Positions 18,958 to 62,732 of a DNA stretch of 64,000 bases are shown one piece after another. The notes under the pieces were generated by a model. It saw only the letters and a list, made by a program, of their open reading frames with translations, had not been told where the DNA came from and searched no databases. The number at the start of each line of letters is the position of its first letter. Positions within the stretch are counted from its first letter, which is position 1. Both the position numbers and the translations under genes were made by a program. The DNA lies in NCBI RefSeq assembly GCF_005281475.1, contig NZ_CP040106.1, forward strand, positions 2,570,501-2,634,500, read 5' to 3'. Source of the stretch: Echinicola rosea. Lineage in GTDB: Bacteria; Bacteroidota; Bacteroidia; Cytophagales; Cyclobacteriaceae.

Positions 18958-19698
18958 TTATACATCAAAAAAACGAAGTTTTCGATATTTTACTGGGAAT
19001 GACAGGCTGATAAAGTATGTTTCGTCCATCAGCAGGCTCTTTATTTTCCAATCCGAGAAGCCTCCCCCTACTTCATAGGGAATATACTGCGTGCCGTCTA
19101 GGCAGTTGATGGTATGGAGGTTGTCCACCATGCCTACAGAAGTGGCTTTTAGCAGGGACTCTTTACGGGTCCAAAGTTTATAAAATTCATGACGAGGTGA
19201 ATACGCATTTTCAATAAAGTGTGTCTCAGGTTTGGTAAAACAGTTATTGATCAATGATAGAAAGTCAAAATCGCTGTCAACGTGTTCAATGTCCACTCCA
19301 ACTTCATCACGACAAAAACTGAAAATCACCCAGTCTTTGGAGTGGGAAATATTAAAATGGATGTTCCGGTCGCTTTTTAATATCGGTTTTTTATTGATGC
19401 CTTCGATAAATTCAATTTCCTTGGGAGGTTTGTTAAGGTATTTTGATAGCAAGACTTTTAGGTACCCTTTACCAATAATATACCTTATCCGGTCACTTTC
19501 CCGTTGGTACCTGTTCATGGTTGTGAGTTCTTCTTCTGTAAGGTGTTGCTGAAGTGGAGAAAGTTTTCCCATCAGTTCTTTTACAGATACTCTCCAAAGG
19601 TCAATATGATCATCGATCATATAATCCGATTGTTGGTTCCAGTTGGGAAGTAAAACGGTGCTGCAATGAATCTTACTGATATATAGTTGGCTATTCAT
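18958..19698 (-). CDS. Sfp-type 4'-phosphopantetheinyl transferase
   Basis: A 246-residue protein counted from ATG 19698; an upstream in-frame TTG at 19734 would add 12 residues. It transfers phosphopantetheine from CoA to carrier-protein serines. Diagnostic Sfp/Gsp motifs are GVDIEHV (Mg-binding D136 and E138) and WTRKESLLKA (W176, K179, E180); KGY and PILKSDRNIHFNISHSKDW match P1/P2. The two-domain length is of the Sfp class, not AcpS. Located about 500 bases downstream of the NRPS gene on the same strand, it is the obvious activator of the five carrier/synthase proteins' T and ACP domains in this locus. Confidence 0.9.
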   Translation of the reverse strand: MNSQLYISKIHCSTVLLPNWNQQSDYMIDDHIDLWRVSVKELMGKLSPLQQHLTEEELTTMNRYQRESDRIRYIIGKGYLKVLLSKYLNKPPKEIEFIEGINKKPILKSDRNIHFNISHSKDWVIFSFCRDEVGVDIEHVDSDFDFLSLINNCFTKPETHFIENAYSPRHEFYKLWTRKESLLKATSVGMVDNLHTINCLDGTQYIPYEVGGGFSDWKIKSLLMDETYFISLSFPVKYRKLRFFDV

Positions 19699-19850
19699 AG
19701 GACACGTTTTATTCTCCTGGTATTTAAAATGCAAACAACATTTTTGCTATTAATTTTGCAGCTTGATAATCGTTGATAGGTTATAATACTGTATAATGTA
19801 GTAGCGGGTAGGGTAGTTTTATTATTCATTTTTATGTTAGTGTTTTCCAT
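19695..19850 (-). CDS. Possible 51-residue leader ORF coupled to the PPTase gene
   Basis: An open frame from ATG 19850 to TGA 19695. Its stop overlaps the PPTase ATG as ATGA, a translational-coupling arrangement. The product is rich in Asn, Thr, Lys and Ile and resembles no family; composition is close to that of the surrounding AT-rich DNA. It may be a chance frame. Confidence 0.25.
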   Translation of the reverse strand: MENTNIKMNNKTTLPATTLYSIITYQRLSSCKINSKNVVCILNTRRIKRVL

Positions 19851-20195
19851 ATTGAATGGAAGGTCTTAACAAGAAGCACTTGACAACTTTGTTTTTTTTT
19901 ACTTTATCGTCTTTTTCCTACGTTGGTTTTATTTAGTGTAAGAAAGAAGGTACCATTGTCTTTTGCCCGTGTTAATCAAAAGTAAATCTAGTTAATTTTT
20001 AAATCAATAAAAATGTATTTTAAATTAAAAAAAATGAATTTAAATAAAATGTAATTGAAATGAAACTATACAGCAATAATCCAGTGTAAATAGTGTATAA
20101 CACCAAGAAAAAATTATCTTTTATCTATAGATTATTCTACGCTAGGGAATTGGCGGTATCCGGTTTATGGCCGGACACCGCTTAATTACAGTTGC
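19735..20195. other. AT-rich intergenic region between NRPS and PPTase genes
   Basis: Carries the shared 20-base element (20006-20025), and a minus-strand -7 box TACTTTTG (complement of 19977-19984) that would give the PPTase an independent promoter with a leader of about 270 bases. Confidence 0.5.
20006..20025. promoter_or_regulatory. Shared AT-rich element, copy A (putative operator)
   Basis: AATAAAAATGTATTTTAAAT, identical over 20 bases to 31024-31043, with similar flanks (GTTAA on the left, AAAAAA-Y-GAAT on the right). It contains the interrupted palindrome AAAAT-GT-ATTTT. It lies 21 bases upstream, on the minus strand, of the TACTTTTG box in front of the PPTase. Confidence 0.5.
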
Positions 20196-23100
20196 CTACT
20201 CCCTAGCATTCAGAGTTTCTTGGAGTTTGTAGCCAAATGGTGCTACAAAAGGGTGATCAAACATGCTGTTATGATCGCCTTCTATATCGATTACTTGGAT
20301 GGAATTTACATATGGAGTCCAGCCGTAGTATTTTTCCTCACTTACTGGTGCCAGCTTGATTTTTGCTTTGAAAAGTACCATGTCAACGTTTATAGGTTTT
20401 AAAGAATAGTTGAGCAAAGCCTCTTTATTGATTTGTTTTATCCTCTTGATAATAGCGGCACGGTCATGGGGGGAATTGTCTTTTTGAAGCCCCATTTTGG
20501 TCAGCAGGTTTTCGGTTTTCCGCTTGATCATTCTTCCTTTGGTGGTTTTAAATGTCTCAGGAGCTTCTACCAGAAGTTGTATTTCCACTTTTCTTTTGTG
20601 GAATTCTTTGGAAATCATGTCGAATATCCCCTTTTTGTCACCTTCCTCTTCCATCGGCTCCACGCTTGTGTCGAAGATGATCAATTTTCCCATGGCTTTG
20701 TTTTTTGCGATGAGTTGCCTCGCCATTTCGAATGCCACATAGCCACCAAAGGAATAACCACCGATATGGTATGGGCCTTCAGGATTATGCTCAATGATTT
20801 CATTGACATAGTGTGCGGCAATATTTTCCAATCCTGAATTTGGGGTGTCAATACCGTTTAGGCCCTTCGCTTGAAGCCCATAGATAGGCTGGTCTTTATC
20901 TACGTGGTCGATGAGCTTATAGTAATTGGTGATATTGGCAGCGATACCATGGACTACATAGATGGGTGGTTTACTGCCCTCAGGCTTGATAGCGACCAGC
21001 GAACTCCATTCGTTGCTTACTGCTTTGGTCTCTTCCTTATTTTCTAGGAGTGCAGCAAAAGACCGTACGGTGGCATGCTTAAATATCGTCGTTAAGGGCA
21101 GCTGAGCATCGATTTTTTTGTCCAGTTTGCTCATGACTTCTACCGCAAGGATAGAGTGACCCCCAAGCTCAAAGAAATCATCGTCCAAATCGATATAACT
21201 CAGTTTAAGGCTTTCCTTCCAGATCTCACCGATGATTTTTTCAATTTTGGACCACTCCCGGTCGTTTGGAGATGTTTTTTCTATAGCCTTTGAAGCAGGA
21301 AAGGGAAGGGCTTTATGGTCTATTTTTCCATTTGGTGTGAGTGGAAATTGCTTTATGCCCACCCAGTGGGAAGGTATCATGTACGATGGCAATTTAGCCT
21401 GGATACTTGATTTCCATCTTTTCAGGGTTTCATCCGATATGGCTGAAGGTTCATTGTGTGCGTTGACAGTATTCCTGGTGACATAAGCGACGAGTTGTTT
21501 ATGGCCTTGCTGGGATTCCTGTACCGTTACGTGAGAAGCCATGACACTTTCCAGCTGGTTGATCTGCTGTTCTATTTCTCCTAGCTCAATGCGGTGTCCC
21601 CTGATCTTGACCTGGTTGTCGATCCTTCCCAGGCACATCAATTCACCATTGGTCTTAAACTTGCCCAGGTCGCCTGTTTTGTACATCAACTTTCCATTAT
21701 TCGCAAACGGATTAGGGATAAATCGTTCCTTTGTTAAATCCACCTTTTGCCAATATCCCAGCGCTACACCATCTCCGCCAATATGTATTTCGCCGACTTC
21801 ACCAATATCGACCAACTGCCGGTTTTCATCAAGCAAATAGATCTCAGTATTATTTATAGGCGTGCCTATAGAATCAAAATCATCCGGTGTTTTTATGTGC
21901 TTCAGACTGGATAGTATGGTTGTTTCTGTAGGGCCATAAGCGTTCCATATCTCTTCGGTAATGGGGAGCAGTTTTTCGATGAGGTGCTTTTGGAAGGGCT
22001 CACCACCAGAGACGATTTTAAGCGGCAGAGGAAAATCCCATCCCACCTGGACCAGCATCTGGTAAGTGGCCGGTGTGGAAAATACCCGTGTGATTTTCTT
22101 TTCTCCAAGCGCCTTAAGAAGCAGCCGGCCATCTTTGAGGGTAGGTGTGTCCGCGATTACCAATGTAGCGCCGGCTATCAAAGGGCCAAAAAGTTCCATT
22201 CCCGCCACATCAAAGGAAATCGTCGTAACGGCCAATACGCGATCTGAATAGGAAATTCCAGGACGGTCTTGTAAACTGTATAGGAGATTAGTGAGGTTTT
22301 GGTGGCTGACTTTTACACCTTTGGGCAAACCGGTGGATCCAGAGGTATATAAGAGGTAAACTGGATCATTCATCTGGATATTTGCCTCTTGATAGGTGTT
22401 GGGCAAGGTTTCATAATCCCGGTGGAAGTCCTCGATAAATATCCGCTGCACTGTTGCTTGAGGAATATCCTTTATGGAAGTGGTCGTTACGATCGCTGTG
22501 GCACTGGCATCATTCAGCATGTGCTGGATACGGTCATGTGGCAACTCCGGATCGATAGGGATATAGGTCAGACCGGATTTGGCTACTCCCAGAAGCCCGA
22601 TCACCATGTCTGCTGATCGAGGCATCAAAAGGCCTATTCGGTCACCTTTTTTTAGGTTTTTACTTTGTAAAAATGCAGCAAACCTATTGGACTGGTCTTC
22701 TAGTTCCTTATACGTGACCAGCTGATGTTGGAATTCGATGGCAGTTTTGGTAGGGAATTGATTGGCCATGGCGTGCACCAATCTGGTAAAGGGTACATTC
22801 TTGGGATAATCCTGCTCAGTGTCATTCCACTTTTCATAAAAGCCGACCAGTTTGACAGGGTCAAAAAGGTGAATGTCCCTTAATTTCGTTTCGGGGTGAT
22901 GGACGATGGTTTGCAGAAGCCGATCGAATTCCTCCATCATCTTCCCAACGGTGGCTTTTTTAAACAGCTTCGTGTTGTAGGACCAGTCAAATTGGTAGGA
23001 GTCCCCACTGTTTGTCAAGTTAAGCGCCAACTCAAAATTATCAAAAGCCCTCGGGTTGCTGATCAGTTCATGGTCAAGGCCGTGAAACTGGACTTGTGCG

Positions 23101-24233
23101 TCCATCCCCATGTCCAGGTTAAAAATAACAGGCACTAAGGCCGTTTTTGAAAGGTCCCTTTTGCGGTTCAGCTTGTTTAGCAGACTACTGTATGTGAAAA
23201 GCTGATGGTCATAGCAATCGAGTATTTCCTCATTTCGCTGTTTTAGGAAAGAGAGGAAAGTAATGTCGTTGTCAATCTTACTGTATAGTGGTAAAAGGTT
23301 GACGCAGTGTCCCACAAGGTTAAAAAGACCAGTCGCGGACTGCCCAGCTGCAGGAATGCCCAAGATCACTTCTTGGCGTTGACTTTTCTTCGAAAGAAAC
23401 AGCTCAAACGCAGCGATAAAGGTGGTCACAAGAGACGCACCAGCAGTTTTACCCAAGGCTTGAACCTTATCGATCTGAGTTTTGGGCAATTTAAATTGCA
23501 GCCGTTCACTATCGTAGGTTTTTATTGCAGGACGGATGTGGTCAGTAGGAAGCGTAAAATCTTCCGTTTGATGGTTGAATTTTTCCATCCAAAATGAAAT
23601 GGTATCGGCATGTTCCGGGAGGCTCTCCAATTCCGTTATTTGCCGACAGTAATCACTGAGAGGATTGACCTTGGGCAATTGGGGAGCGCCTTTTAGTACG
23701 TTGGCATTGTAGATTTTACAAATGTCCTCCAGTATCACACCAAGCGACCATCCATCGCCGATGAGGTGGTGGACGGAAAGGGTGAAGTAATGCTCCGTTG
23801 AAGATAATTTGTGAAGGGCCATTCTGAACAGCGGGCCATTTTCCAAGTCAAAAGCGGTCAGGGCATCTTCGCGGTGAAATTGCCCTATGTATTCGGCCTC
23901 TGTGGCAGCATCCAAGGCAGATATGTCTTCTGTATGGATCCGAATAGGCATTTTTTCCTGGATAAGAATCTGCTGGCCATCGATGGCAAATATGGCCCTT
24001 AGTGCTTCATGTCTATTGACTACTTCCTGAAGTGCTTCTAAGAAGGATGGCTGGTCAAACGTCCCTTTCAGCACCAATGAGATGGACTCGTTATAGGCCC
24101 TGTTGGCGTCTTCTCCTCCGATTTTGCAGGCTAGCCAAATTTCTCGCTGCGACGGGATACTGGTATAGGCTTTCTCAATGGCAATGCCAAAGGGGTCATA
24201 ATCAACAACTTCAAAGGTTAGATCAGTATTCAT
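20196..24233 (-). CDS. Nonribosomal peptide synthetase, C-A-T-TE
   Basis: A 1,345-residue terminal module. The condensation domain (about 15-450) has HHLIGDG (H155, H156, D160). The adenylation domain (about 470-985) has YTSGSTGLPKG, NAYGPTETT and KTGDLGK; the specificity residues read by eye are D-V-M-S-I-S-A-I-L-K, which I cannot assign. The carrier domain has GGHSI with S1027 as phosphopantetheine site. The thioesterase (about 1090-1345) has GYSFGG with S1161 and a late GDHNSM histidine. It begins 10 bases after the hybrid PKS/NRPS stop, so the two form one operon. It should add one amino acid to the upstream intermediate and release the product. No epimerase or methyltransferase domain is visible. 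Confidence 0.95.
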   Translation of the reverse strand: MNTDLTFEVVDYDPFGIAIEKAYTSIPSQREIWLACKIGGEDANRAYNESISLVLKGTFDQPSFLEALQEVVNRHEALRAIFAIDGQQILIQEKMPIRIHTEDISALDAATEAEYIGQFHREDALTAFDLENGPLFRMALHKLSSTEHYFTLSVHHLIGDGWSLGVILEDICKIYNANVLKGAPQLPKVNPLSDYCRQITELESLPEHADTISFWMEKFNHQTEDFTLPTDHIRPAIKTYDSERLQFKLPKTQIDKVQALGKTAGASLVTTFIAAFELFLSKKSQRQEVILGIPAAGQSATGLFNLVGHCVNLLPLYSKIDNDITFLSFLKQRNEEILDCYDHQLFTYSSLLNKLNRKRDLSKTALVPVIFNLDMGMDAQVQFHGLDHELISNPRAFDNFELALNLTNSGDSYQFDWSYNTKLFKKATVGKMMEEFDRLLQTIVHHPETKLRDIHLFDPVKLVGFYEKWNDTEQDYPKNVPFTRLVHAMANQFPTKTAIEFQHQLVTYKELEDQSNRFAAFLQSKNLKKGDRIGLLMPRSADMVIGLLGVAKSGLTYIPIDPELPHDRIQHMLNDASATAIVTTTSIKDIPQATVQRIFIEDFHRDYETLPNTYQEANIQMNDPVYLLYTSGSTGLPKGVKVSHQNLTNLLYSLQDRPGISYSDRVLAVTTISFDVAGMELFGPLIAGATLVIADTPTLKDGRLLLKALGEKKITRVFSTPATYQMLVQVGWDFPLPLKIVSGGEPFQKHLIEKLLPITEEIWNAYGPTETTILSSLKHIKTPDDFDSIGTPINNTEIYLLDENRQLVDIGEVGEIHIGGDGVALGYWQKVDLTKERFIPNPFANNGKLMYKTGDLGKFKTNGELMCLGRIDNQVKIRGHRIELGEIEQQINQLESVMASHVTVQESQQGHKQLVAYVTRNTVNAHNEPSAISDETLKRWKSSIQAKLPSYMIPSHWVGIKQFPLTPNGKIDHKALPFPASKAIEKTSPNDREWSKIEKIIGEIWKESLKLSYIDLDDDFFELGGHSILAVEVMSKLDKKIDAQLPLTTIFKHATVRSFAALLENKEETKAVSNEWSSLVAIKPEGSKPPIYVVHGIAANITNYYKLIDHVDKDQPIYGLQAKGLNGIDTPNSGLENIAAHYVNEIIEHNPEGPYHIGGYSFGGYVAFEMARQLIAKNKAMGKLIIFDTSVEPMEEEGDKKGIFDMISKEFHKRKVEIQLLVEAPETFKTTKGRMIKRKTENLLTKMGLQKDNSPHDRAAIIKRIKQINKEALLNYSLKPINVDMVLFKAKIKLAPVSEEKYYGWTPYVNSIQVIDIEGDHNSMFDHPFVAPFGYKLQETLNARE

Positions 24234-24243
24234 GACAAGGATA

Positions 24244-27200
24244 TTAGGTAGTCTTAAAAGTTAAATGAAGGTATTTTCCGGGGCGATCTGGGTCAGGGAC
24301 AAACCAAGCAGCCTTTCCTTCTTGGTCTTGTCCTAGCTTAGCACCGGGTACAGGCGGCTGATCTTTGGAGATGACATGTGGAGAAGAATGGAGGCTTTCG
24401 GAAAGGCCAGGGATGATTTCGTCCCAAAACGTAGCCGAGATAAGTTGCTTAAAGCCGCTTATGATAATTTCCAAGATTTTGTCAATATCCTCGTCCTGGT
24501 AGGCTGCAGTAGCGAAGCATGGGAAACCATCATAAATATGAAGTCCTTGCTCTCTAAAAGTGGCAAATAACAGCTCCGTGTACGGGAGTTCCGCTTTGAA
24601 TTTTATTTTCCATAGCGAACCAAAATTGGCTACGTATGCGGGGATCTTGTGGTCTTGGAAGAAACCGTTCAGTCCGTCTGCCAACCGTTGGATTTTGGCA
24701 GCCAGCTTTTCTTGAAGCTTGCCATTGTCCTGTTGGATATATTCGAGGGAAGCTTTTGCAGTGGCCAAGGCCAGGGGATGCCTTACGAAGGTTCCTGCAA
24801 AATAGGTGACCCCAATATCTGGGACGGAGTTGTCTCCATACTGCCAGTGACCACCATCCAGAGCGTCCATGAAGGCTGCTTTCCCGGCAATGACCCCGAT
24901 AGGCAATCCTCCGCCTACGACTTTTCCATACGTCGCCAGATCTGCTTTAATACCGAAGATGCCTTGGGCGCCCTGCGGGTGCATCCTGAACCCAGTGATC
25001 ACCTCGTCGAAAATCAATGCGGAGCCAGAAGCTGCGGTGATCTCACGGACCTTTTTCAGGAATTCTATCGGCTGAAACTCCGGCCTTCTGCTTTGGACAG
25101 GTTCTACGAGTACCGCAGCGATTTCATCTTTTCGTTCCTCTATTATTTTTAGGGCTTCTTCCGTGCCATAGTCCAGTATAAGGATGTTTTCGACTGCCTC
25201 GGACATGATGCCTGCGGCTGCAGGAAATGATTTAAGGCTTTTGGTTCCCCGAACGATGACTTCATCAAAGATGCCGTGGTAAGACCCGTTAAAGGCAACC
25301 ACGAGCGATCGCTGGGTGATGGTTCGGGCCACGCGTAAGGCGCCCATTACGGCTTCAGAGCCGGTGTTGCACAAAGCAGACCGGTCGTGGCCGGTGATGT
25401 CACAGATGAGTTTGCACACTTCACCGGAGAGCTCATGCTGGGGGGCTATTTCGTAGCCCTTATCTATCTGGGCTTTTAAGGCCTCGTCGATAAAGGATGG
25501 CTTATGTCCGAATAAAATTGAGCCAAAGCCATTCAGGATGTCCAAGTATTCATTGCCATCGATGTCCCAGATCCTACTTCCTTTTGAGCGGTTTACGACA
25601 AGGGAATAGACTGTCTCTTTGATGCTTGGATTAAAGCCACTGACCACCCGTGGGTCTGCCATGTGGCTCCTGTTTTGCTGGGTGTAGGCTTTGCTGGAGG
25701 CTGTTTTGGAAGTATATCTTTTGGTAAAATCAGCAATAAAGTTATGCTGCTTTTCGGGTAATTTTTGACCCTTCTTATCGATTCGGGCCGTGGCACCGAA
25801 AGGTTTTTTCAGGTTTTCGGTTTCTTCCTTCGTTAACTTGACCGTGGTCCCGTTGGTAGGCAAAGGTGCATTGGCTTGGCCATTTCCGTTTGGTGGAGCC
25901 GTTGGCTGCGGGGCGGGAGCTGAGGTGGGCAGAGGTGTGCCTTGCAAAAGGGCCAGCTGCTTGGATAGAAGTTCTAGCTGTTGACCGATTAATCCGATGG
26001 CAGATTGGTTGTGTGCCGGCGGATAAGATGGTGCAGTCATGGTGTGATTGCTGCCGTTTTTAGGCTGCGAGGCAGCAGTGGGTGATGGTGCAGAACTGGC
26101 AGCGGGAGCGGTAGCAGGCGCAGGCTGAAATTGATCCGCAGGAAGTTCTTGGTCCAAATATCCCACCAATGCATCTATAGTGTTGATTTGGGAATTCAGC
26201 TGTCTGAAAGAAAGTGGTACACCAAATGCTTTTTTGAGGGCAAATGATAATTGAGTGAGCAAAAGGGAGTCCAATCCAAGTTCCAGAAAAGTGCTGTCAC
26301 CAGCTTGGAGACTGATTTCCAGACCAGAAAGGTCCTCCAATACGTCAATGGCTTTTTTTCGTATAGTATCGGTTCTCATATGTTTAGTAGTAGTTTCGTT
26401 ATTATTAGTATTTGTAGAGGGTTGAGCAAGTGTCGGCGTAGTAACTTCCCTAGGGAGCGGGTCGATCCAGCACCTTTTCCGGTCAAAGGCATAGGTGGGC
26501 AGATCATCTAGTCGGATGCGTTTTTGCCCCGAATAGAAGCGTGTCCAATCTGGCTGAATACCAGCAATGATCATTTCTCCCAAATTGCCCAGCAGTTCTT
26601 GGTAGTGATGTTGATTGCTTTGGCGATTTATACTGTTGACTGTTGTGGCGCTTTTAGCGGAAGGGTGCTGTTTGATCAGCGTGCTGATGACATTTCCTGG
26701 TCCTATTTCCAAGAAGACACCATTTGGGTCATTGCCCAAAAGGTATTCGATGGCAGGAGAGAAAAGCACGGATTTTCGCAAGTGGTCCGTCCAGTATTGG
26801 CTGCTTGTAGCTTCTTGATCAGTAAGTGGCAAGGCTGTGACGGAAGATATAATGGGCAGTTGAGGAGTACTCAGCTTGGCCAGTTCGACCTCTTTGCCAA
26901 AGTCATCAAGAACAGGATCCATCATGGAAGAATGGAAGGCGTGACTGGTAAACAGTTTTTTGTGAAGGATGCTTTCCTGATCAAGTTTACTGCTGATCTC
27001 AGCAATAGCTTCTGACGGACCGGCCAGCACACATAAATTGGGGGAGTTGACTGCAGCTAAAGAGATATTTTCCTTAATGAGGTGTTGTATTTTGGACTGT
27101 GGAGCCCTGACCGATAGCATGTCGCCACCGGGTAAGTCGGCCACCAATTGTCCTCTTTTGGCTACTAATCTGGTGACGTCTTCTAGGGAGAAAACACCTG

Positions 27201-30200
27201 CCAAATGGGCCGCTACAAACTCACCGATGCTATGTCCGACCAGTGATGAAGGAGCGAATCCCCATGCCATCCATTGCTGTGCCAGCGCATATTCAATAGC
27301 AAATATGGCCGGTTGCGTATAGCGCGTGTTTTTTAGGATGGCTTCCGCCTCATGGCTTTCTTCCGCAGGATAGATGATGTCCAAAAGCGGCTTGTCCATT
27401 AACTCATCAAACAAAGCAGCACAATGCATCAATGCCTCCCTGAAAACCGGAGCATATTCGAACAAGTCCTTGCCCATGTTCAAGTATTGAGCTCCCTGTC
27501 CGGGAAATACGAATACGGTGTTTTGAGGCAATTGCTTCATTGCTTTTTTCCTTGCTGTGGCCCCATTTGTGCCTTCCAGTTGGGAAAGAAGGTCTTCTTT
27601 GTCCTTGAAGGTGAGATAGCTTTTATAGAGGAATTGCTGGGGTTTGGTATTGATGGAAAAGCTTAGGTCAGCCAGGTTTAGGGCAGTAGAGGATTGTACA
27701 AATCGATGTAGTTTAGCCTTATAGAGTTCAAGGCTGTTTTCCGTTTTTGCAGAAAAGGAGAGAAGGTGGTAAGGGGCCGTGGATTCATCAGAAGACTGCT
27801 GAATGTGCGGGTATTCTTCTAAGATCACATGGACATTGGTGCCGCCGATACCAAATGAGCTGACACCTGCCCTAAGTGGAAATTCCCCTTCCCAATCTAC
27901 CGTAGCTCCGTTAATGTAGAAAGGACTGTCTTTTAAATCTATTTGTGGATTTAGCTCCTCAAAACCCCGGGTGGCCGGAAGTTTTCGGTGGTGCAGGGAA
28001 AGGACCGTTTTGATCAACCCTGTCACTCCTGCGGCAGCGGTGAGGTGGCCAAAATTACTTTTGACCGAGCCAATGCCGCAAAAATGTGCCTTGGAATGTC
28101 TCCCGAAGGCCATTTTCAATCCTTCGATTTCGATAGGATCACCCAAAGGAGTGGCCGTGCCATGCGCCTCTACATAACTTATGGATGCTGAAGATACCTT
28201 GCTGTCCTGTAGGGCTGCTTTAATGACATCTGCTTGGCCTTTGGTGCTAGGGGCAGAGAAACTGCCTTTTCCATTACCGTCATTGTTGATGCCGAATCCT
28301 TTGATGGTGGCATAGATTTTATCCCCGTCCTGGATAGCGGTGTCGAGGTCTTTGAGCATGATGGCAGCCGCACCATCGCTAAATAAGGTTCCTGTCGCTT
28401 TAGCGTCAAATGGCTTGCAGTGACCGTCTTTGCTGAAAATAGCACCTTCTTGGTATAAGTGTCCGCTGTGGATAGGAGAAGTGATGGTGCTTCCTCCGGC
28501 GATGGCCATCACGCATTGGCCAGAACGAATACTCTGTACTGCCTGTGCTACCGCCAACAAAGAGGTAGAGCAGGCCGAATAAACGCTTATCGCTGGTCCT
28601 GTGAGGTCAAACTGGTAAGCTGTTCGGGTTGCGATATAATCTTTTTCATTAAGGGTCATGATCTGAATCGCACCATTTTGCTCGATCAGGTCAGGGTTGC
28701 TGAGGAGATTTTTTTGGTAATAGGTGTTATTGTTGGTGCCCGCGAATACACCAGTCTTGTGCGATGTCTCTGAAGTCGTTTGCTGGGTTTTCTCGATAAG
28801 TTCCCAGGCCAGCTCCAGAAATAAGCGCTGCTGGGGATCCATCAAGGCCGCTTGGTGGGGTGTGATGCCAAAAAAGCTATGATCAAATTTATCCGCATTT
28901 TCGATAATGCCACGCGCTTTTACGTAATGGTCGTCTTTCTTGAGATCCTCAGGGATCAAATCGTCAAGTTCCTCATCACTGAAGCGGGTAATGGATTCTT
29001 TCCCCTGCACCAGATTGTCCCAAAATGTGGCGATATCCTCTGCTCCTGGAAACCTCCCCGCCATTCCTACGATGGCCACAGCCTTGGATGAAGAAGGTTT
29101 GGTACTTGTGCTTGCTGTAGGGGATGGCTGTTGGTCTTCAGAAAGGTAATCAGTCAGTTGCTTAATGGTGGGGTATTGATATATGCTCGTGACAGGAACT
29201 GTCAAACCAAGCTCTAGCCGAATGTCGTTGGACAATTTTTGCACGAGCAGGGAGTTGCCTCCAAATTCAAAGAAGTTGTCAGAAGTACCTATTTGGTCAA
29301 AATGAAGTGCCTTTTCAAATAGTTTGGCCAGTTTCTTTTCCAAGGCTGTTTTGGCGGGAACAATAGGGGTTTCGACATGTTCACGCTTATTGATGGGGTC
29401 AGGAAGTAGCTTGCGGTCTATTTTTCCACTGGTTGTTTTGGGGAAAGCATCCATTTCGTAGAATACGGCCGGGATCATGTATTCCGGTAGGCTTTGCGCC
29501 AAGTGGTCGATCAATTCCTTTTGGCTGGGCCGTTGGTTTTCTGAAGGGATATAATAGGCTACCAAGTATTTTTGTCCGTCATCATATGTCTTAGCCAGTA
29601 CGGCGACTTGGTAAACGGCGGTAAATTTGCCAAGCACTGCTTCTACTTCCCCGAGCTCGATACGGTGGCCGCGGATTTTAACTTGATCATCACGCCGACC
29701 AAGGAAGGTCACTTCCCCATCCTCGCTGATTTTGGCAATATCTCCCGTTTTGTAAGCCCGAAGGGAAGGCCTTTTTGGGAGGGTGGTGAGGGTTTTGAAC
29801 TTTTCTTCTGTGAGGATAGGCTGATTCAGGTAGCCAGAGGCCAAGCAATCTCCTGCAATGTACAATTCTCCTTCCTTGCCATAGGAAACAGGCTGATCGT
29901 TTTCATCCAATACGTATAGCTGGACGTTGTTAATGGCATAGCCAATGGAAGGCAAGGACGGCCAGTTGTTGATGTTTTGAGGTTTGAGGACCAATTGGGA
30001 TACCACATGGGCTTCTGTAGGTCCGTACTGGTTGAAGAGTGTGGTGTTGGGCAGGTGACTGAAAAGCCGCTTGACTTGGTCGGTGATTTTAAGCTGCTCT
30101 CCGGCTGTGATGACATCTTTTAAGGAGCTGGGGTAGAGATTATGCGCGACGGCGGTATGTGCCAGCGACTGAAGACTGACAAAAGGCAGGAAAAGCCTGT

Positions 30201-30933
30201 TGATCTTATTTTTGTCGATAACCTGTAAGAGGGCCAGTGGATCTTTTACGGTTTCTTCATCCACCAAGTGTAACGTCCCCCCTGTAGTCAGGGTACTGAA
30301 AATTTCCTGAAAAGATACGTCAAAGGTGAATTTTGAAAATTGGAGCGTTTTTGATCCCTGTAACTTGTCAAACTGCCCTTCTTGCCACAGCAATAGGTTT
30401 ACCAGGGCACCATGAGGCATGCAAACACCTTTTGGCTCTCCTGTGGATCCTGAAGTAAATAGGATATAAGCCGTGTTTTCAGGCGCAAAAGTGATCGCAG
30501 GAGCTAAAATTGGGTAATTGGAAGGGATTTTTTCCAAAAGATCAATCTGCTGTAAGCTTTTTGGAGCTTCGTCCAGATAGTTACGGTCACGAATCAATAG
30601 TTTTGCCTCTGCTGCTGTGCAGATAAACCTTTTGCGCTCCACTGGAAATTCAGGAGCAATAGGGACATAAGCAGCACCGCATTTTAAAATGGCCAGCATC
30701 GCAACAATCATTTCTATGGATCGATGGGCACACAGCGCGACCTTGTCGCCCGGAGATATACCCTTGTCTATGATCAAATGAGCCAGCCGGTTACTGTCGT
30801 CTTCCAATTTTTGATAGGAAATATGGCTCTTTTCAAACGATATGGCATCTCGCGTAGAGGCAGTCATTGGCCGCCTTTTTAAAAGGTCAACAAGGGTCAT
30901 CTTGGGAAGGGGGGTAATGTTATGGGTATTCAT
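24244..30933 (-). CDS. Hybrid NRPS-PKS with aminotransferase: A-T-KS-AT-ACP-AMT
   Basis: A 2,229-residue loading and extension protein. Adenylation (about 10-520): FTSGSTGEPKG, NQYGPTEAH; specificity residues by eye D-V-Q-F-I-A-Q-V-V-K, near the proline-type code. Carrier: FGGNSLL, S561. Ketosynthase (about 615-1045): ACSTS with C788, plus EAHGTATPLGD and the KSNFGH histidine. Acyltransferase (about 1140-1440): GHSIGE with S1235 and HAFH, typical of malonyl-CoA selection. ACP: LGLDSLL, S1556. A Pro/Ala-rich linker (about 1600-1700). Class III PLP aminotransferase (about 1750-2180): IFDEVITGFR and YGKVVGGG with K2004, as in MycA/McyE-type beta-transamination domains. There are no KR, DH or ER domains. 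The C-terminal tail FVPDPDRPGKYLHL probably docks to the NRPS C domain encoded 10 bases downstream. Confidence 0.95.
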   Translation of the reverse strand: MNTHNITPLPKMTLVDLLKRRPMTASTRDAISFEKSHISYQKLEDDSNRLAHLIIDKGISPGDKVALCAHRSIEMIVAMLAILKCGAAYVPIAPEFPVERKRFICTAAEAKLLIRDRNYLDEAPKSLQQIDLLEKIPSNYPILAPAITFAPENTAYILFTSGSTGEPKGVCMPHGALVNLLLWQEGQFDKLQGSKTLQFSKFTFDVSFQEIFSTLTTGGTLHLVDEETVKDPLALLQVIDKNKINRLFLPFVSLQSLAHTAVAHNLYPSSLKDVITAGEQLKITDQVKRLFSHLPNTTLFNQYGPTEAHVVSQLVLKPQNINNWPSLPSIGYAINNVQLYVLDENDQPVSYGKEGELYIAGDCLASGYLNQPILTEEKFKTLTTLPKRPSLRAYKTGDIAKISEDGEVTFLGRRDDQVKIRGHRIELGEVEAVLGKFTAVYQVAVLAKTYDDGQKYLVAYYIPSENQRPSQKELIDHLAQSLPEYMIPAVFYEMDAFPKTTSGKIDRKLLPDPINKREHVETPIVPAKTALEKKLAKLFEKALHFDQIGTSDNFFEFGGNSLLVQKLSNDIRLELGLTVPVTSIYQYPTIKQLTDYLSEDQQPSPTASTSTKPSSSKAVAIVGMAGRFPGAEDIATFWDNLVQGKESITRFSDEELDDLIPEDLKKDDHYVKARGIIENADKFDHSFFGITPHQAALMDPQQRLFLELAWELIEKTQQTTSETSHKTGVFAGTNNNTYYQKNLLSNPDLIEQNGAIQIMTLNEKDYIATRTAYQFDLTGPAISVYSACSTSLLAVAQAVQSIRSGQCVMAIAGGSTITSPIHSGHLYQEGAIFSKDGHCKPFDAKATGTLFSDGAAAIMLKDLDTAIQDGDKIYATIKGFGINNDGNGKGSFSAPSTKGQADVIKAALQDSKVSSASISYVEAHGTATPLGDPIEIEGLKMAFGRHSKAHFCGIGSVKSNFGHLTAAAGVTGLIKTVLSLHHRKLPATRGFEELNPQIDLKDSPFYINGATVDWEGEFPLRAGVSSFGIGGTNVHVILEEYPHIQQSSDESTAPYHLLSFSAKTENSLELYKAKLHRFVQSSTALNLADLSFSINTKPQQFLYKSYLTFKDKEDLLSQLEGTNGATARKKAMKQLPQNTVFVFPGQGAQYLNMGKDLFEYAPVFREALMHCAALFDELMDKPLLDIIYPAEESHEAEAILKNTRYTQPAIFAIEYALAQQWMAWGFAPSSLVGHSIGEFVAAHLAGVFSLEDVTRLVAKRGQLVADLPGGDMLSVRAPQSKIQHLIKENISLAAVNSPNLCVLAGPSEAIAEISSKLDQESILHKKLFTSHAFHSSMMDPVLDDFGKEVELAKLSTPQLPIISSVTALPLTDQEATSSQYWTDHLRKSVLFSPAIEYLLGNDPNGVFLEIGPGNVISTLIKQHPSAKSATTVNSINRQSNQHHYQELLGNLGEMIIAGIQPDWTRFYSGQKRIRLDDLPTYAFDRKRCWIDPLPREVTTPTLAQPSTNTNNNETTTKHMRTDTIRKKAIDVLEDLSGLEISLQAGDSTFLELGLDSLLLTQLSFALKKAFGVPLSFRQLNSQINTIDALVGYLDQELPADQFQPAPATAPAASSAPSPTAASQPKNGSNHTMTAPSYPPAHNQSAIGLIGQQLELLSKQLALLQGTPLPTSAPAPQPTAPPNGNGQANAPLPTNGTTVKLTKEETENLKKPFGATARIDKKGQKLPEKQHNFIADFTKRYTSKTASSKAYTQQNRSHMADPRVVSGFNPSIKETVYSLVVNRSKGSRIWDIDGNEYLDILNGFGSILFGHKPSFIDEALKAQIDKGYEIAPQHELSGEVCKLICDITGHDRSALCNTGSEAVMGALRVARTITQRSLVVAFNGSYHGIFDEVIVRGTKSLKSFPAAAGIMSEAVENILILDYGTEEALKIIEERKDEIAAVLVEPVQSRRPEFQPIEFLKKVREITAASGSALIFDEVITGFRMHPQGAQGIFGIKADLATYGKVVGGGLPIGVIAGKAAFMDALDGGHWQYGDNSVPDIGVTYFAGTFVRHPLALATAKASLEYIQQDNGKLQEKLAAKIQRLADGLNGFFQDHKIPAYVANFGSLWKIKFKAELPYTELLFATFREQGLHIYDGFPCFATAAYQDEDIDKILEIIISGFKQLISATFWDEIIPGLSESLHSSPHVISKDQPPVPGAKLGQDQEGKAAWFVPDPDRPGKYLHLTFKTT

Positions 30934-31487
30934 GGCAAAAGAGTGTAGTTCTGTAGAGACAAACAGCTTTTGAAATAGAGGTAGTTATTGTCTCCGATGA
31001 ATAAAGTTAAATAATTTAAAACAAATAAAAATGTATTTTAAATAATAAAAAACGAATATAGATTATTTTTTTATTAGGGCTTGTTTTATGAAAGTCGAAT
31101 GTTTGTTTTGAATAATTATTTTTTTGTTGATAAAAACCAAATAGTAGTAAGATATAAGAATTTATGGTTAAATTTTTATGTTTTTCAAAGGTTGGACTGT
31201 TTTTGTTTTTTGGTAAGGGGTTGTTGGTCAGTATGGTAAGTTGGAGAGAACATGTGTTCTATCCTTGTGGTTTCAAGACGTCATGACAATTTGATGGGGC
31301 ATTTTAATCAACATTTGGGGTGTTGGTTTTAAAATTTTATTTTGTATATTTCTTTGATAGGGTATATGGAAGCTGAAGCTAAGTTTTAGCTACCACATTC
31401 ATGTGTTTTGTTCAACTTTTTAGGTTCAGAAAACACTAAAGGCATTTGTTCATAAAACTGTATCAATACACCCAAAGGGTCTTGTCC
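30934..31487. other. Divergent AT-rich regulatory region of the biosynthetic operon and the DUF5687/ABC operon
   Basis: Contains the shared element copy B (31024-31043) and a one-mismatch -7 box on the minus strand (TAACTTTA, complement of 31003-31010) for the hybrid synthetase. No gene was recognised in the remaining sequence. Confidence 0.5.
31024..31043. promoter_or_regulatory. Shared AT-rich element, copy B (putative operator)
   Basis: Identical over 20 bases to 20006-20025, 91 bases upstream of the hybrid synthetase ATG. Contains AAAAT-GT-ATTTT. Confidence 0.5.
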
Positions 31488-32957
31488 ATGATTAAACATC
31501 TTATAAAACTTCAATGGAAATCTTTCTTTAGGTCTGCTGCTTTTTCTTCCAATCTCGCCATTAAGATTCTGATGGGATTTGCAGCATTGTATATGATGCT
31601 AAGTTTCGGATTCTTGGGGGTGGCTTCATATTATATTATGGAAGAGATGGGGCTAAATGCCTTGGATACGGTGAACAGGCTGTTGGTTTATTATTTGATT
31701 ATTGATCTGGTCATTAGGTATTTGCTTCAAAAAATGCCTGTCGTGCAGATAAAGCCATTGCTTTTCTTGCCCATTAAGAAATCGGCCATTGTTCAATATA
31801 GTATTTGGAAGACGGTGTTGTCTTTTTTTAATATTATCCACGCTTTTTTCTTTATCCCTTTTGCAGTGGTTTTGGTGATCAATGGATACGCGACCGTCTC
31901 TGTTGTCATGTGGCTAATGGGGATTTATGCCTTGATCATGGCAAATAATTTTATCAATATTTTTCTGAACGGGGTGGACGCTGTGCTCTATTCAGTTGCG
32001 GGGATATTGGCATGTTTGGGGGGGATGCATTATTATGGCGTGTTTGATATTTCGGTATATACCGGTCCTTTGTTTCAGTATCTTTATGAATTCCCCGGTG
32101 CTGCATTGATTCCACTGGGGCTAATGGTGGCCGTCTATTGGGTAGCATATAGGTATTTTAGGAAGCGGCTTTATATGGACGCGGGGCTTTCAAATAAGCT
32201 AAAAGAGGCCAAATCCGAAAACCTGGAGTGGCTTGATCGGTTTGGGAGTATTTCGGTGTTCTTGAAAAACGATATCAAACTTATCAAAAGAAACAAGCGC
32301 TCCAAGACTACCGTGCTCATGAGTGTCATGTTCCTTTTTTATGGCCTTTTGTTTTTCACAAATGCCATTGATGCATACGAGGGACCGGCATGGAGGATTT
32401 TTGCAGCACTTTTTGTGACGGGAGGCTTTCTGTTTAGCTTTGGCCAGTATGTGCCCAGCTGGGACAGTTCCTACTATCCCTTGATGATGAGTCAAAACGT
32501 CCGCTACCGGGATTACCTCAATGCTAAATGGTGGCTGATGGTAATGGCCACGGTGGTTTCTACGATTTTGGCTTCTTTCTATGCGTATTTTGGATGGGAG
32601 GTTTACTTGGCCATATTGGTAGCTGGGCTATACAATGTAGGCGTCAATTGCTACATGGTTTTGTGGGGAGGTGTATATGTGAGGACTCCCATTGACCTTT
32701 CCAGCAATAAAGGGGCTTTTGGCAGTTCCCAGGCATTTAATGCCAAAACCTTATTGCTAACCATTCCCAAGATGATCGTTCCAATGATCCTTTATGTCAT
32801 TGGACATATGGTAAAGGGACCTTACCTGGGGTACCTTTTCGTAGCGATAGTGGCCGTTCTCGGGTTTGCATTTAAAGAAAGGGTGTTCAATTTAATTGAG
32901 AAAAATTATAAAACGGAGAAATACAAGACCATAGCTGCTTATAAGCAAAAAAGCTAG
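31488..32957 (+). CDS. DUF5687 family membrane protein (ABC transporter permease)
   Basis: A 489-residue multi-spanning protein from ATG 31488. A TTG at 31446 would add 14 residues, but the family begins near MIKHLIKLQWKSFFRS. About 11-12 hydrophobic segments, with the cytoplasmic segment LPIKKSAIVQYSI and a large charged loop (about 240-280). DUF5687 proteins of Bacteroidetes are encoded next to an ATP-binding protein, as here, 5 bases before it. The cargo is unknown. Because it diverges from the NRPS/PKS genes it could be their exporter, but the pair is widespread without such clusters. Confidence 0.82.
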   Translation: MIKHLIKLQWKSFFRSAAFSSNLAIKILMGFAALYMMLSFGFLGVASYYIMEEMGLNALDTVNRLLVYYLIIDLVIRYLLQKMPVVQIKPLLFLPIKKSAIVQYSIWKTVLSFFNIIHAFFFIPFAVVLVINGYATVSVVMWLMGIYALIMANNFINIFLNGVDAVLYSVAGILACLGGMHYYGVFDISVYTGPLFQYLYEFPGAALIPLGLMVAVYWVAYRYFRKRLYMDAGLSNKLKEAKSENLEWLDRFGSISVFLKNDIKLIKRNKRSKTTVLMSVMFLFYGLLFFTNAIDAYEGPAWRIFAALFVTGGFLFSFGQYVPSWDSSYYPLMMSQNVRYRDYLNAKWWLMVMATVVSTILASFYAYFGWEVYLAILVAGLYNVGVNCYMVLWGGVYVRTPIDLSSNKGAFGSSQAFNAKTLLLTIPKMIVPMILYVIGHMVKGPYLGYLFVAIVAVLGFAFKERVFNLIEKNYKTEKYKTIAAYKQKS

Positions 32958-32962
32958 TGATT

Positions 32963-33682
32963 ATGATAAATATAGAAAATCTATCAAAAAAATACGGGAA
33001 AGATACTGTACTGGATATCGACGCAATGGAAATTCCCTCAGGGGAGATTTTTGGCCTCGTAGGAAACAATGGTGCGGGGAAGACCACACTTTTTAGTTTG
33101 CTTTTGGATCTTATCATGCCCAGTTCTGGAAAGGTGCTGAACAATGGGATTCAAGTAAACACCAGCGAGGACTGGAAGCCGCTTACCGCAGCGTTTATCG
33201 ATGAAACTTTTTTGATCGGGTACCTGACGCCAGAAGAGTATTTTTATTTCATCGGGGAGTTGCGCGGGATGAACAAGCAGGATGTCAGTGAGTTTCTGGT
33301 GCCTTTTGAGGATTTCTTTGATGGAGAAATCCTTAGAGGGAAAAAATATCTTCGGGATCTTTCAAAGGGAAATCAAAAGAAAGTGGGGATCGTTGCTTCA
33401 TTTCTGGGGAATCCAAAAGTGATTATCCTTGACGAGCCCTTTGCCAATCTAGATCCCACCACTCAAATTAGGCTCAAAAAAATTATTGTCAAATACAAGG
33501 ACATGGATGAAGTGACCTTGTTGATCAGTAGTCATGATTTGCTGCATGTGACGGAAGTTTGTCAACGCATCGTAGTGCTTGATAAAGGCAAAGTGGTGCG
33601 GGATACCAAAACATCAGAGGCTACCCTTAAGGAATTGGAAGGTTTTTTCGCGGAAGAAATCCAGTCCACAGAAGGGAATTAA
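32963..33682 (+). CDS. ABC transporter ATP-binding protein
   Basis: A 239-residue ATPase from ATG 32963 (GTG at 32957 adds two residues). Walker A GNNGAGKTT (about 34-42), signature-like LSKGNQKKVG (about 134-143), Walker B VIILDEPF (about 155-162) and the H-loop SSHD. It powers the DUF5687 permease encoded immediately upstream. The short accessory domain and class resemble ABC-2-type exporters or membrane-stress systems. Confidence 0.9.
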   Translation: MINIENLSKKYGKDTVLDIDAMEIPSGEIFGLVGNNGAGKTTLFSLLLDLIMPSSGKVLNNGIQVNTSEDWKPLTAAFIDETFLIGYLTPEEYFYFIGELRGMNKQDVSEFLVPFEDFFDGEILRGKKYLRDLSKGNQKKVGIVASFLGNPKVIILDEPFANLDPTTQIRLKKIIVKYKDMDEVTLLISSHDLLHVTEVCQRIVVLDKGKVVRDTKTSEATLKELEGFFAEEIQSTEGN

Positions 33683-34047: not shown

Positions 34048-36102
34048 TTATGTTTGTGCTGCGAGATCTATTAAGAAGGCATAGTCCATGGCCGTTTCTT
34101 TTAAAGCATGAAACCTCCCCGAAGCACCTCCATGTCCTGCGTCCATATTGGTGTAAAGTAAGAGCAGGTTTTTGTCTGTTTTTTTATCCCTTAGCTTGGC
34201 CACCCATTTGGTAGGTTCCCAGTATTGGACTTGGCTGTCATGTAGTCCGGAGGTGACCAGTAGGTGAGGGTAGTCTTTGCTTTCCACATTGTCATAAGGC
34301 GAATAAGCAAGCATATAGTCATAATAGTCCTTGCTTTTAGGATTTCCCCATTCGTCAAATTCACCCGTGGTCAGCGGAATGCTCTCATCCAGCATAGTGG
34401 TCACCACATCCACAAACGGTACGGCGGCGATGACACCTTGGTACAGCTCGGGGCGCATATTGATGACCGTACCCATCAACATTCCCCCAGCACTACCGCC
34501 CATGGCGAAAAGCTTCTTCGAAGAGGTGTACCTTTCATTGATCAGGTGCTCGGAACAGGCGATAAAGTCCGTGAAGGTGTTTTGCTTTTTGAGCATTTTT
34601 CCATCATCATACCAGTGTCTTCCCATTTCCTGTCCACCACGGATGTGGGCGATGGCAAAGACAAAACCCCTGTCGAGAAGGCTGAGACGGTTTGAGCTGA
34701 ACACGGCATCGGTGCTGAATCCATAAGAGCCATATGCATACTGTAGCAATGGATTGGAACCATCTTTTTTGAAAGTGTCCATTTTGTAAACGAGTGAAAT
34801 AGGGACTCTTGTGCCATCTGGGGCAATGGCCCAGGTTCTCTCGGATTGGTATTGGGAAGGATCATAGCCCCCCTGAATTTCTTGCTGTTTCAGTAGTTCT
34901 TTTTCACGCACTTCCATGTCATAGTCATAAGTGGAAGAAGGAGTGGTCAAGGAATTGTAGCCAAATCGTAAAGAAGTAGTGTCAAATTGTGGGTTGTAAC
35001 CTAGCCAAGCGGTATAGGTGGGATCGTCAAAAGTGATATAGTGACTTTCCGTACCGTCCCACGGCATGATTTGTATTTTTGTCAGTCCATTTGTACGTTC
35101 TTCGAGTACCAGATACTGTTTGAATACCTCAAATCCCTCCAACAGCGTATCCTGATGATGAGGGACCACGTCTTGCCAGTGTTCTTTTTGTGGATTCGCG
35201 ACAGGGGTTTTGACCAATTTGTAATTGCTGGCCTTTTGATGGTTGGTAAGGATCAAGAAGTGATCCTCAAAGTGTTCCACACTGTACTCCAGATCACGCT
35301 CTCGTTCTTGTATGAGCTGGAAAGATGAGGTCGGTTGATGAGCGTCCAAGTAGCGGGTTTCTGAGGAAACGGTACTTTCGCTGACGATGAAGACAAAATC
35401 TTTGGATTTGGATTTGGCGACATGACAGGTGAACGTTTCATCGGCTTCTTCATAAACTAAAATATCCTCTTCCTGTGGCGTTCCCAATGTATGTCTGTAA
35501 ACCTGAAAAGCCCTTAGTGTGTTGGGGTCCTGTTTGGAGTAAAAGAGGGTTTTGTTGTCATTTGCCCAGACCATGTTGCCTGTGACCTCGGTGATTTCAT
35601 CTGTTAGGATCGTATCGGTGCTGAGGTCCTTTACCTTGATGGTATATATTCTCCTGCCGATATTATCTTCAGCGTGTGCAAGCAATTGTTGATCATAAGA
35701 AAGGGTAATTGCATTGACGTTAAAGTATTCGTGCCCTTCTGCTATTTGGTTTACATCCAAGAGCACCTCTTCACGGTTTTGTAGAGCGTCCTTTTTTCTG
35801 CAAAAAACAGGGTATTCACCACCTTTTACAAATTTGGTGTAGTAAAAATAACCATCTCTATAGTAGGGAACACTTTCGTCATCCTCTTTGATGCGGTTTT
35901 TCATCTCCAGATAGAGCTTCTCCTGTAGTGGCTCCGTATGCGCTAAATTGGCTTTTAGAAAATCATTTTCCTTGTTGAGGTATTGAATGACTTCAGGGTT
36001 TTCCCTGTCATTCATCCAATAATAAGGATCGATTCGGGTATGGTTATGGTAAGTGATTTCCTGTATTTTAATGGGAGCCTTGGGGGCTTCTACTCTTTTC
36101 AT
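34048..36102 (-). CDS. ptrB: Oligopeptidase B (prolyl oligopeptidase family S9A)
   Basis: A 684-residue serine peptidase cleaving short peptides after basic residues. The N-terminal seven-bladed propeller covers about 70-400. The catalytic domain carries the nucleophile in GGSAGG (about 530), the Asp in GLHDSQVQY (about 615) and the His in DAGHGG (about 655). The conserved substrate-binding glutamates around FEEWG are represented by FDEWGNP. Start is ATG 36102: the longer reading from TTG 36138 would begin within the promoter box. Cytoplasmic, no signal peptide. Confidence 0.92.
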   Translation of the reverse strand: MKRVEAPKAPIKIQEITYHNHTRIDPYYWMNDRENPEVIQYLNKENDFLKANLAHTEPLQEKLYLEMKNRIKEDDESVPYYRDGYFYYTKFVKGGEYPVFCRKKDALQNREEVLLDVNQIAEGHEYFNVNAITLSYDQQLLAHAEDNIGRRIYTIKVKDLSTDTILTDEITEVTGNMVWANDNKTLFYSKQDPNTLRAFQVYRHTLGTPQEEDILVYEEADETFTCHVAKSKSKDFVFIVSESTVSSETRYLDAHQPTSSFQLIQERERDLEYSVEHFEDHFLILTNHQKASNYKLVKTPVANPQKEHWQDVVPHHQDTLLEGFEVFKQYLVLEERTNGLTKIQIMPWDGTESHYITFDDPTYTAWLGYNPQFDTTSLRFGYNSLTTPSSTYDYDMEVREKELLKQQEIQGGYDPSQYQSERTWAIAPDGTRVPISLVYKMDTFKKDGSNPLLQYAYGSYGFSTDAVFSSNRLSLLDRGFVFAIAHIRGGQEMGRHWYDDGKMLKKQNTFTDFIACSEHLINERYTSSKKLFAMGGSAGGMLMGTVINMRPELYQGVIAAVPFVDVVTTMLDESIPLTTGEFDEWGNPKSKDYYDYMLAYSPYDNVESKDYPHLLVTSGLHDSQVQYWEPTKWVAKLRDKKTDKNLLLLYTNMDAGHGGASGRFHALKETAMDYAFLIDLAAQT

Positions 36103-36430
36103 AAGTAACGTTTCGCTTTTCAAATTGAACTCCTGCAAATTTACAGTCTGCCAAAAAAGAAACCTATGGATCCTTTAAATTGATTGAAAAGAATAGGACA
36201 GCAATGATGGTTTGCGGGCACTTAATAAGTTTAGTAGTTACTGCCGGTTTAAGGATGGGTGTTTTCAATGTTGATAATAGGGTATGGGCAGTTAGGGAAG
36301 TGTGCTAAAAGTCCAAATATATTGGGCATTGGTTTACGAGCAATAAAGTTGATGGGTATGAAATTAAATATTTAAATAATGTATAATTGGCAAAATAAAT
36401 TATATTTATAAGTTTTTAAAGATATTTAAT
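36103..36430. other. Divergent promoter region of ptrB and mscL
   Basis: Contains the ptrB -7 box. The last 100 bases before mscL are very AT-rich but show no exact TAnnTTTG box. No gene recognised. Confidence 0.5.
36136..36143 (-). promoter_or_regulatory. -7 promoter box of ptrB
   Basis: Minus-strand TAAATTTG, an exact TAnnTTTG match, 33 bases before the ATG at 36102. Confidence 0.5.
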
Positions 36431-59216: not shown

Positions 59217-59248
59217 TTCCAACAGTGGTTACCATGAAAAGCAACAAC

Positions 59249-61448: not shown

Positions 61449-61548
61449 TATGGGGTGTTATGGTATTGTTTTTGGTTGTTGTAAATTTGTTTTTGGGTTA
61501 GCCCTTAAATAAATAACCAATCTTATATAAAAGATACACATACATCCC

Positions 61549-62598: not shown

Positions 62599-62621
62599 TG
62601 CTTGCGAGAGTGGTTAAAGAA

Positions 62622-62662
62622 AAAAAAGGATAGCCGAATATGTATTTTGGCTATCCTTTTTT
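62622..62662 (+). terminator. Intrinsic terminator of rfbB
   Basis: AAAAAAGGATAGCC (62622-62635) pairs perfectly with GGCTATCCTTTTTT (62649-62662), 13-base loop. Confidence 0.9.
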
Positions 62663-62724
62663 GTTGATGGTGAATGAAGCAGTTCATAATTGATATTTGC
62701 ATTTTCATAACTTGGATATTTGAG

Positions 62725-62732
62725 TATATTTG
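62725..62732 (+). promoter_or_regulatory. -7 promoter box of the export operon
   Basis: TATATTTG, an exact TAnnTTTG match, 43 bases before the ATG at 62776. A TTTG at 62696-62699 is at a slightly long spacing (25). Confidence 0.5.

What the first reader, a model, noticed from the sequence alone, without database searches (positions are those of the whole stretch)
18958..30933. Compact two-protein NRPS/PKS line with beta-transamination and its own PPTase
The domain order A-T-KS-AT-ACP-AMT then C-A-T-TE is visible with intact catalytic residues (C788, S1235, S561, S1556, K2004; H155/H156, S1027, S1161). There is no KR/DH/ER, so the AMT must act on the beta-ketone, giving a beta-amino (here beta,gamma-diamino) acid capped with a second amino acid. 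The A1 pocket code read by eye is close to a proline-type code, so a pyrrolidine-bearing beta-amino acid is possible. MycA/McyE-type AMT domains usually work on fatty acyl or Adda chains; starting from an amino acid, in a stand-alone dimodular line in a Bacteroidetes, looks unusual. No product is known to me for this layout.
Basis: partly seen in the sequence, partly recalled or inferred. Interest (0 to 1): 0.75.

Follow-up and report, generated by a model that had tools for sequence, protein, structure and literature searches.

The report
Widespread beta-amino dipeptide assembly line
Two large enzymes that probably join two amino acids through an extra two-carbon, amine-bearing link are really there and look functional, but the same machine occurs in many related bacteria, where its unknown product often goes with genes for making surface sugars.

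Summary
Protein 1 (24244-30933, minus) is A-T-KS-AT-ACP-AMT; protein 2 (20196-24233) is C-A-T-TE; a PPTase lies beside them.

The claim that it is unusual fails. The host is an Echinicola. The protein 1 layout is complete in 77 of 80 named related loci, 64 with C-A-T-TE next to it, in many Bacteroidota and three Lysobacter. It was tabulated in 2013 for Pedobacter heparinus, without a characterised product (PMC3870968). The PPTase is not private: four Echinicola genomes without the synthases keep it at the same site.

Best reading: an amino acid, probably proline, is extended by malonyl, aminated at the beta position, joined to a second amino acid and released by the TE. Product unknown.

Two family patterns look new. 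The AMT domain is missing, with the tail kept, in scattered relatives (four changes of state on a tree). Relatives sit among exopolysaccharide genes in 13 of 20 clusters tested, but not in Hymenobacter-type genomes, nor in the window.

The parts
24244..30933 (-). Protein 1, hybrid synthase A-T-KS-AT-ACP-AMT with a C-terminal tail (residues about 2179-2228)
   Evidence: the tail is kept in AMT-less relatives; a docking role for the tail is inferred
20196..24233 (-). Protein 2, NRPS C-A-T-TE
18958..19734 (-). Sfp-type PPTase, older neighbour at this site, probably primes the carriers
   Evidence: present in 11 of 11 Echinicola genomes, four of which lack the synthases
29374..30933 (-). A1 (adenylation) part of protein 1, proline-like pocket
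24247..25866 (-). AMT part of protein 1 with linker and tail
   Evidence: MycA is the best solved relative
34048..36138 (-). S9 prolyl oligopeptidase; flanking marker of the site, not part of the pathway
   Evidence: stays next to the PPTase in four Echinicola genomes without the synthases

Best explanation
A two-protein hybrid assembly line making an amino acid + C2 + NH2 + amino acid compound. Inferred steps: A1 activates an alpha-amino acid, most likely L-proline, and loads the first carrier; KS and a malonyl-type AT add one C2 unit, leaving a gamma-amino-beta-keto thioester on the ACP; with no KR, the MycA-like AMT turns the beta-ketone into an amine, giving a beta,gamma-diamino acyl unit (with proline, 3-amino-3-(pyrrolidin-2-yl)propanoyl). 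Protein 2's C domain joins it to the amino acid chosen by A2, and the TE releases it as a linear acid or a lactam. The PPTase next door probably primes the carriers but is an older gene of the site. The cluster is the Echinicola branch of a large Bacteroidota family with varying starters. Shown here: domains, residues, pocket signature, constraint, synteny, family spread. Inferred: substrates, chemistry, release mode, product.
For: Domain order and intact residues; AMT scores 380 bits against MycA and 180 against the best aminomutase; no reductive domain; AT motifs GHSIGE and HAFH (malonyl reading recalled); A1 signature DVQ-IA-QVV, shared by many relatives (proline reading recalled); among single-stretch PDB matches A1 scores highest against tyrocidine synthase 2 at 339 bits, with GrsA at 272 (its proline module is recalled); AMT is the most conserved part, 93% against 79-86% for the other named domains and the tail, in the G003 comparison.
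Against: No substrate or product was measured. The A1 signature differs from the recalled proline code at position 322, and position 278 was read from a wrong column. A2 of the window was not assigned. A keto-reductase acting in trans, or loss of the intermediate as a lactam, is not excluded. Four of 11 Echinicola genomes do without the synthases.
Confidence: 0.6

Rival explanations
1. Same chemistry, but the gamma-amine closes on the ACP thioester, so protein 1 sheds a small lactam (an aminopyrrolizidinone or tetramate-like bicycle) and protein 2 works mainly on another substrate.
For: Gamma-amino beta-ketothioesters can form five-ring lactams (general chemistry, recalled); AMT-less relatives exist in which only the keto form could be made.
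Against: C-A-T-TE follows protein 1 directly in 64 of 80 named loci and is 10 bases downstream here, so the two act together in most of the family.
Confidence: 0.12
2. The starter is not proline but another imino or hydrophobic acid (for example pipecolate), with the rest of the scheme unchanged.
For: Position 322 is Q, not the H of the recalled proline code; other pocket types are common in the family.
Against: The remaining read positions agree with the recalled proline code.
Confidence: 0.2
3. The product is a building block or decoration of a surface glycan rather than a free small molecule.
For: In relatives 21 of 40 ten-kb flanks (13 of 20 clusters) hold glycosyltransferase, flippase, Wzz-like or FkbM genes, against 0 of 39 control stretches; in 18 of 74 named loci the gene just upstream on the same strand is of these families.
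Against: None lies beside the window's cluster, and the nearest of the 26 of 32 listed GT2 genes in this genome is about 200 kb away. The link depends on lineage: 0 of 5 clusters of family f13 and 0 of 1 of family f1. HMMs came from related loci.
Confidence: 0.15
4. A decaying cluster without present function in this strain.
For: Four of 11 Echinicola genomes lack the two synthases.
Against: Catalytic residues intact, dN/dS about 0.1, no internal stop.
Confidence: 0.04

Closest known systems
Pedobacter heparinus C6XWU5, layout A-CP-KS-AT-CP-PLP1 (Table 2 of PMC3870968)
   Same: Same domain order, same phylum, Aminotran_3 domain at the end; cluster predicted there as Nrp-Mal-Gly-Pk
   Different: Only a prediction in print; the sequence itself was not compared here, and A2 of the window differs from the type read in most relatives
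Mycosubtilin synthase MycA (PDB 6kfu, 6kfm, 6kfr)
   Same: Embedded Aminotran_3 domain of the same clade of solved structures, catalytic lysine aligned, after a KS-AT-ACP type module (MycA chemistry as told in PMC3870968 passages)
   Different: MycA works on a fatty acyl chain (recalled); here the starter is loaded by an amino-acid A domain
Echinicola, Spirosoma, Larkinella, Hymenobacter, Pedobacter, Mucilaginibacter, Maribacter, Winogradskyella and Lysobacter relatives
   Same: Same protein 1 layout, usually followed by C-A-T-TE
   Different: A1 and A2 pockets vary; 18 of 80 loci have about 1.2 kb more between an A and its T, a methyltransferase in the one checked; some lack AMT; many have glycan neighbours
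Cephabacins (Lysobacter) and TAN-1057 (Flexibacter)
   Same: Recalled as holding an amino acid + acetate or a beta-amino acid unit; Lysobacter loci L104-L106 are in this family
   Different: No gene-level comparison was made; a lead only

Membership tests
Bacteroidota A-T-KS-AT-ACP-AMT family | Protein 1 domain order | tested here: met
   77 of 80 named loci share it
Bacteroidota A-T-KS-AT-ACP-AMT family | C-A-T-TE directly after protein 1 | tested here: met
   64 of 80 named loci
Bacteroidota A-T-KS-AT-ACP-AMT family | Glycan-assembly genes within 10 kb (frequent, not universal) | tested here: not met
   Window: none within 10 kb by Pfam or the HMMs; relatives 13 of 20 clusters
MycA-type embedded aminotransferase | Aminotran_3 fold nearest to MycA, with PLP lysine | tested here: met
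   K2004 in 116 of 116
MycA-type embedded aminotransferase | Amination of an ACP-bound beta-ketothioester | not testable with these tools
   Needs enzyme assay
Iturin/mycosubtilin synthase | Fatty-acyl loading module | tested here: not met
   Protein 1 starts with an amino-acid type A domain (TIGR01733 above cut-off) with D235
Cluster with a dedicated PPTase | PPTase present only with the cluster | tested here: not met
   11 of 11 Echinicola genomes have it, four without the synthases
Proline-activating A domain | Proline pocket code | tested here: inconclusive
   Signature near the recalled code, Q at 322, 278 not read reliably
Cephabacin or TAN-1057 biosynthesis | Gene-level match | not tested
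   No reference cluster was at hand

The most novel reading that the evidence does not exclude
The family is a modular NRPS-PKS that supplies an amino-acyl building block to surface glycan assembly in several Bacteroidota lineages. Its AMT domain is a detachable option, lost or gained with the tail kept, so that sister lines make beta-amino or beta-keto versions. The Echinicola copy is a member that lies outside the glycan locus.
Probability: 0.15. Interest if true: 0.75.

Novelty: new member of a known kind. Interest (0 to 1): 0.42.

Why it matters
A gene cluster family found in 31 of 291 genomes sampled from the window's order, the own genome included, with no product found in the papers searched, is a ready target. 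Its small size (two proteins, one malonyl unit) makes reconstitution practical. AMT-plus and AMT-less relatives at one Echinicola site are a natural test of what an embedded aminotransferase does. If the exopolysaccharide link seen in some lineages reflects function, it would join modular peptide/polyketide synthesis to glycan assembly.

Tried and rejected
Prolyl oligopeptidase as a pathway gene or target: rejected, because it is an old neighbour also where the synthases are absent. The FabF-like KS at 45916-47169 as a partner: it lies among ordinary chromosome genes such as RNase III, NAD synthase and pyruvate kinase. Swap of whole cassettes between G006 (AMT-less) and G007: PPTases are 96% identical but protein 1 domains only 52-66%; the tree puts both in one Echinicola clade with unresolved order, so swap and fast divergence were not separated. 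Glycine call for A2: plausible for the wider family (recalled code; Pedobacter prediction), not carried over to Echinicola. Paper searches gave listings only; from these I read passages of PMC3870968, PMC9248904 and PMC7440613 and one section of PMC3870968; nothing else on this family was seen. The script took protein 2's A domain for protein 1's in some loci (L028, L033 and L105; L077 has only a partial protein 1); L028 and L033 are of the proline type, and the counts 40 of 76 and 61 of 112 are left as computed. In some searches pocket position 278 came from a wrong column and is not used.

Full report
WHAT IS THERE. Three minus-strand ORFs fill the finding: protein 1 at 24244-30933 (2229 aa), protein 2 at 20196-24233 (1345 aa) and a PPTase at 18958-19734. 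Pfam gives A-T-KS-AT-carrier-Aminotran_3 for protein 1, C-A-T-TE for protein 2, and ACPS plus AASDHPPT_N for the third. Nine protein 1 residues in both carriers, KS, AT and AMT are the same in 116 of 116 aligned sequences (the window and 115 full-length relatives of 120 listed). No reductive domain was hit. The AMT's nearest solved relative is MycA (380 bits; best aminomutase 180 bits).

WHERE IT IS. The window lies in a 6.06-Mb single-contig genome. The closest named relative is Echinicola soli, 85% over residues 1500-2229; the same-genus genome G003 has a contig of the same length as that record. Of 11 Echinicola genomes, seven carry the synthase pair next to the PPTase: the window and six others. 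Beyond protein 1 lies the S9 peptidase in some (with an extra A-T-TE gene between them in G006 and G007) and a DUF5687 plus ABC gene pair in others; metG was not seen beside the PPTase in G007. The other four (G001, G002, G008, G009) have the PPTase directly followed by the S9 peptidase and no synthases; G002 has two other ORFs between metG and the PPTase. The PPTase search gave one match per genome in ten of 11, and six in G002; identity is 57-60% in the four without the pair and 76-92% in the six others with it. So it is an older gene of the site, not private to the cluster. In relatives elsewhere a PPTase-like gene is in the fetched stretch in 56 of 80 loci.

HOW COMMON IT IS. The protein search kept 7209 hits among 7996 scored candidates (capped); of the 120 listed, 115 are full length (over 2100 aa), in Echinicola, Larkinella, Spirosoma, Hymenobacter, Dyadobacter and others. 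In these 80 the protein 1 layout is complete in 77 (the other three are pieces at contig ends) and C-A-T-TE follows directly in 64. Record titles include Cytophagales, Chitinophagales, Sphingobacteriales and Flavobacteriales members and three Lysobacter (orders recalled). In samples, 31 of 291 genomes of the order and 15 of 395 of the phylum, the own genome counted in both, have an AMT match at E at most 1e-120. PMC3870968 (passages, section 7 with Table 2 in full) lists A-CP-KS-AT-CP-PLP1 in Pedobacter heparinus with predicted product Nrp-Mal-Gly-Pk. PMC9248904 (passages) says only 12 of 306 Bacteroidetes cluster families clustered with MIBiG references, so an unknown product is no surprise.

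SUBSTRATES. The A1 signature (GrsA positions 235, 236, 239, 299, 301, 322, 330, 331) is D V Q I A Q V V, near the recalled proline code. By the script, 40 of 76 named relatives and 61 of 112 listed proteins have the proline type (some loci misassigned); the rest show other signatures, so the starter varies while the chassis does not. Among single-stretch PDB matches, A1 scores highest against tyrocidine synthase 2 (339 bits), then McyA (297), 5u89 (296) and GrsA (272); linear gramicidin synthase has more in all, over two stretches. This is weak support for proline. The AT carries GHSIGE and HAFH, malonyl-type as recalled (HAFHS in 115 of 116, HGFHS in one). A2 in 86 gap-selected A domains reads most often DIL-x-LGMIW or near it, recalled as glycine-type; Echinicola A2 reads DVM-x-VGAIL and is left uncalled. 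Eighteen of 80 loci have about 1.2 kb more between an A and its T; in the one checked, L039, Pfam finds a methyltransferase there.

AMT AS AN OPTION. Three relatives (G006 in Echinicola; G036 and G028 in the same family) lack the AMT domain but keep the C-terminal tail. A search with the end of the G006 protein gave 22 hits, of which three lack Aminotran_3: two of 1775 and 1786 aa, and one partial protein of 1191 aa. On a KS-AT-ACP tree of 90 rows, five AMT-less rows need four changes of state and starred branches force four; shuffled labels needed 4.9 on average and 27 of 500 shuffles were as low (quick method; L027 has a long branch). Loss and gain were not separated. Between the window and G003, AMT is 93% identical, A1 84%, KS 86%, AT 82%, tail 79%.

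GLYCAN NEIGHBOURS. Recurrent neighbours in the named loci include GT2 glycosyltransferases, a polysaccharide flippase, a protein with a sub-cut-off GNVR hit taken as Wzz-like, FkbM methyltransferases and DegT aminotransferases. By family label: f11 11 of 12, f23 2 of 2, f13 0 of 5, f1 0 of 1, so the link depends on lineage. Four test genomes (G223, G308, G397, G135) have contigs as long as training records (L032, L030, L086, L042); without them it is 11 of 16. Controls were placed by hand at round coordinates. The 80 named loci, which trained the HMMs, give 47 of 80. Pfam GT2 positions put GT2 genes about 16-20 kb from the AMT in G257, G065 and G267; in the window's genome the nearest of 26 listed (of 32) is about 200 kb away. 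In 18 of 74 named loci the gene just upstream on the same strand is of these families, with overlaps of 10-16 bases in three Pedobacter, by mechanical start codons. The window's own cluster has none beside it; the nearest are an epimerase/dehydratase at 60408, an export protein at 62776 and a Wzz-like gene past it.

VERDICT. It is a new member of a known, uncharacterised kind. On re-checking, the f13 result (0 of 5) led me to lower the odds of the glycan reading from 0.18 to 0.15. The detachable AMT and the lineage-dependent glycan neighbourhood are the most interesting outcome.

Noticed in passing
L127:5225-7930 (window genome G000:C1, about 1057224-1059929): A single-module A-T-TE protein (901 aa, 47% to the A-T-TE part of protein 2) elsewhere in the genome; similar lone open frames of about 910 aa show up in G004, G005, G006, G007 and G010.
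   Followed up: partly
L021:15286-17973 and L022:1862-4522: An extra A-T-TE gene lies directly upstream of protein 1 in Echinicola G006 and G007, 76% identical to each other.
   Followed up: partly
window 31446-33682: A DUF5687 membrane protein and an ABC ATPase lie between protein 1 and the S9 peptidase here and beside protein 1 in G003, G004 and G010, but not in G005, G006, G007 or the genomes without synthases.
   Followed up: no
window 56130-60193: Ig-like protein with a CHU_C type IX secretion signal domain followed by a PorP/SprF gene.
   Followed up: no
window 60408-64000: Start of a small polysaccharide set: epimerase/dehydratase, export protein and a Wzz-like gene continuing past the window.
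   Followed up: partly
L103:2097-2969 and 16 further copies in 12 named loci: Cupin_8/JmjC-like hydroxylase genes recur near the synthases in some relatives; possible tailoring enzymes.
   Followed up: no
L056:5042-18340: Parapedobacter soli carries two protein 1 cores in tandem before the C domain.
   Followed up: no
L104-L106: Three Lysobacter loci carry the family with a different A1 signature and an extra C domain in the second protein; on the tree they group with a Dyella protein and a Bacteroidia MAG.
   Followed up: no
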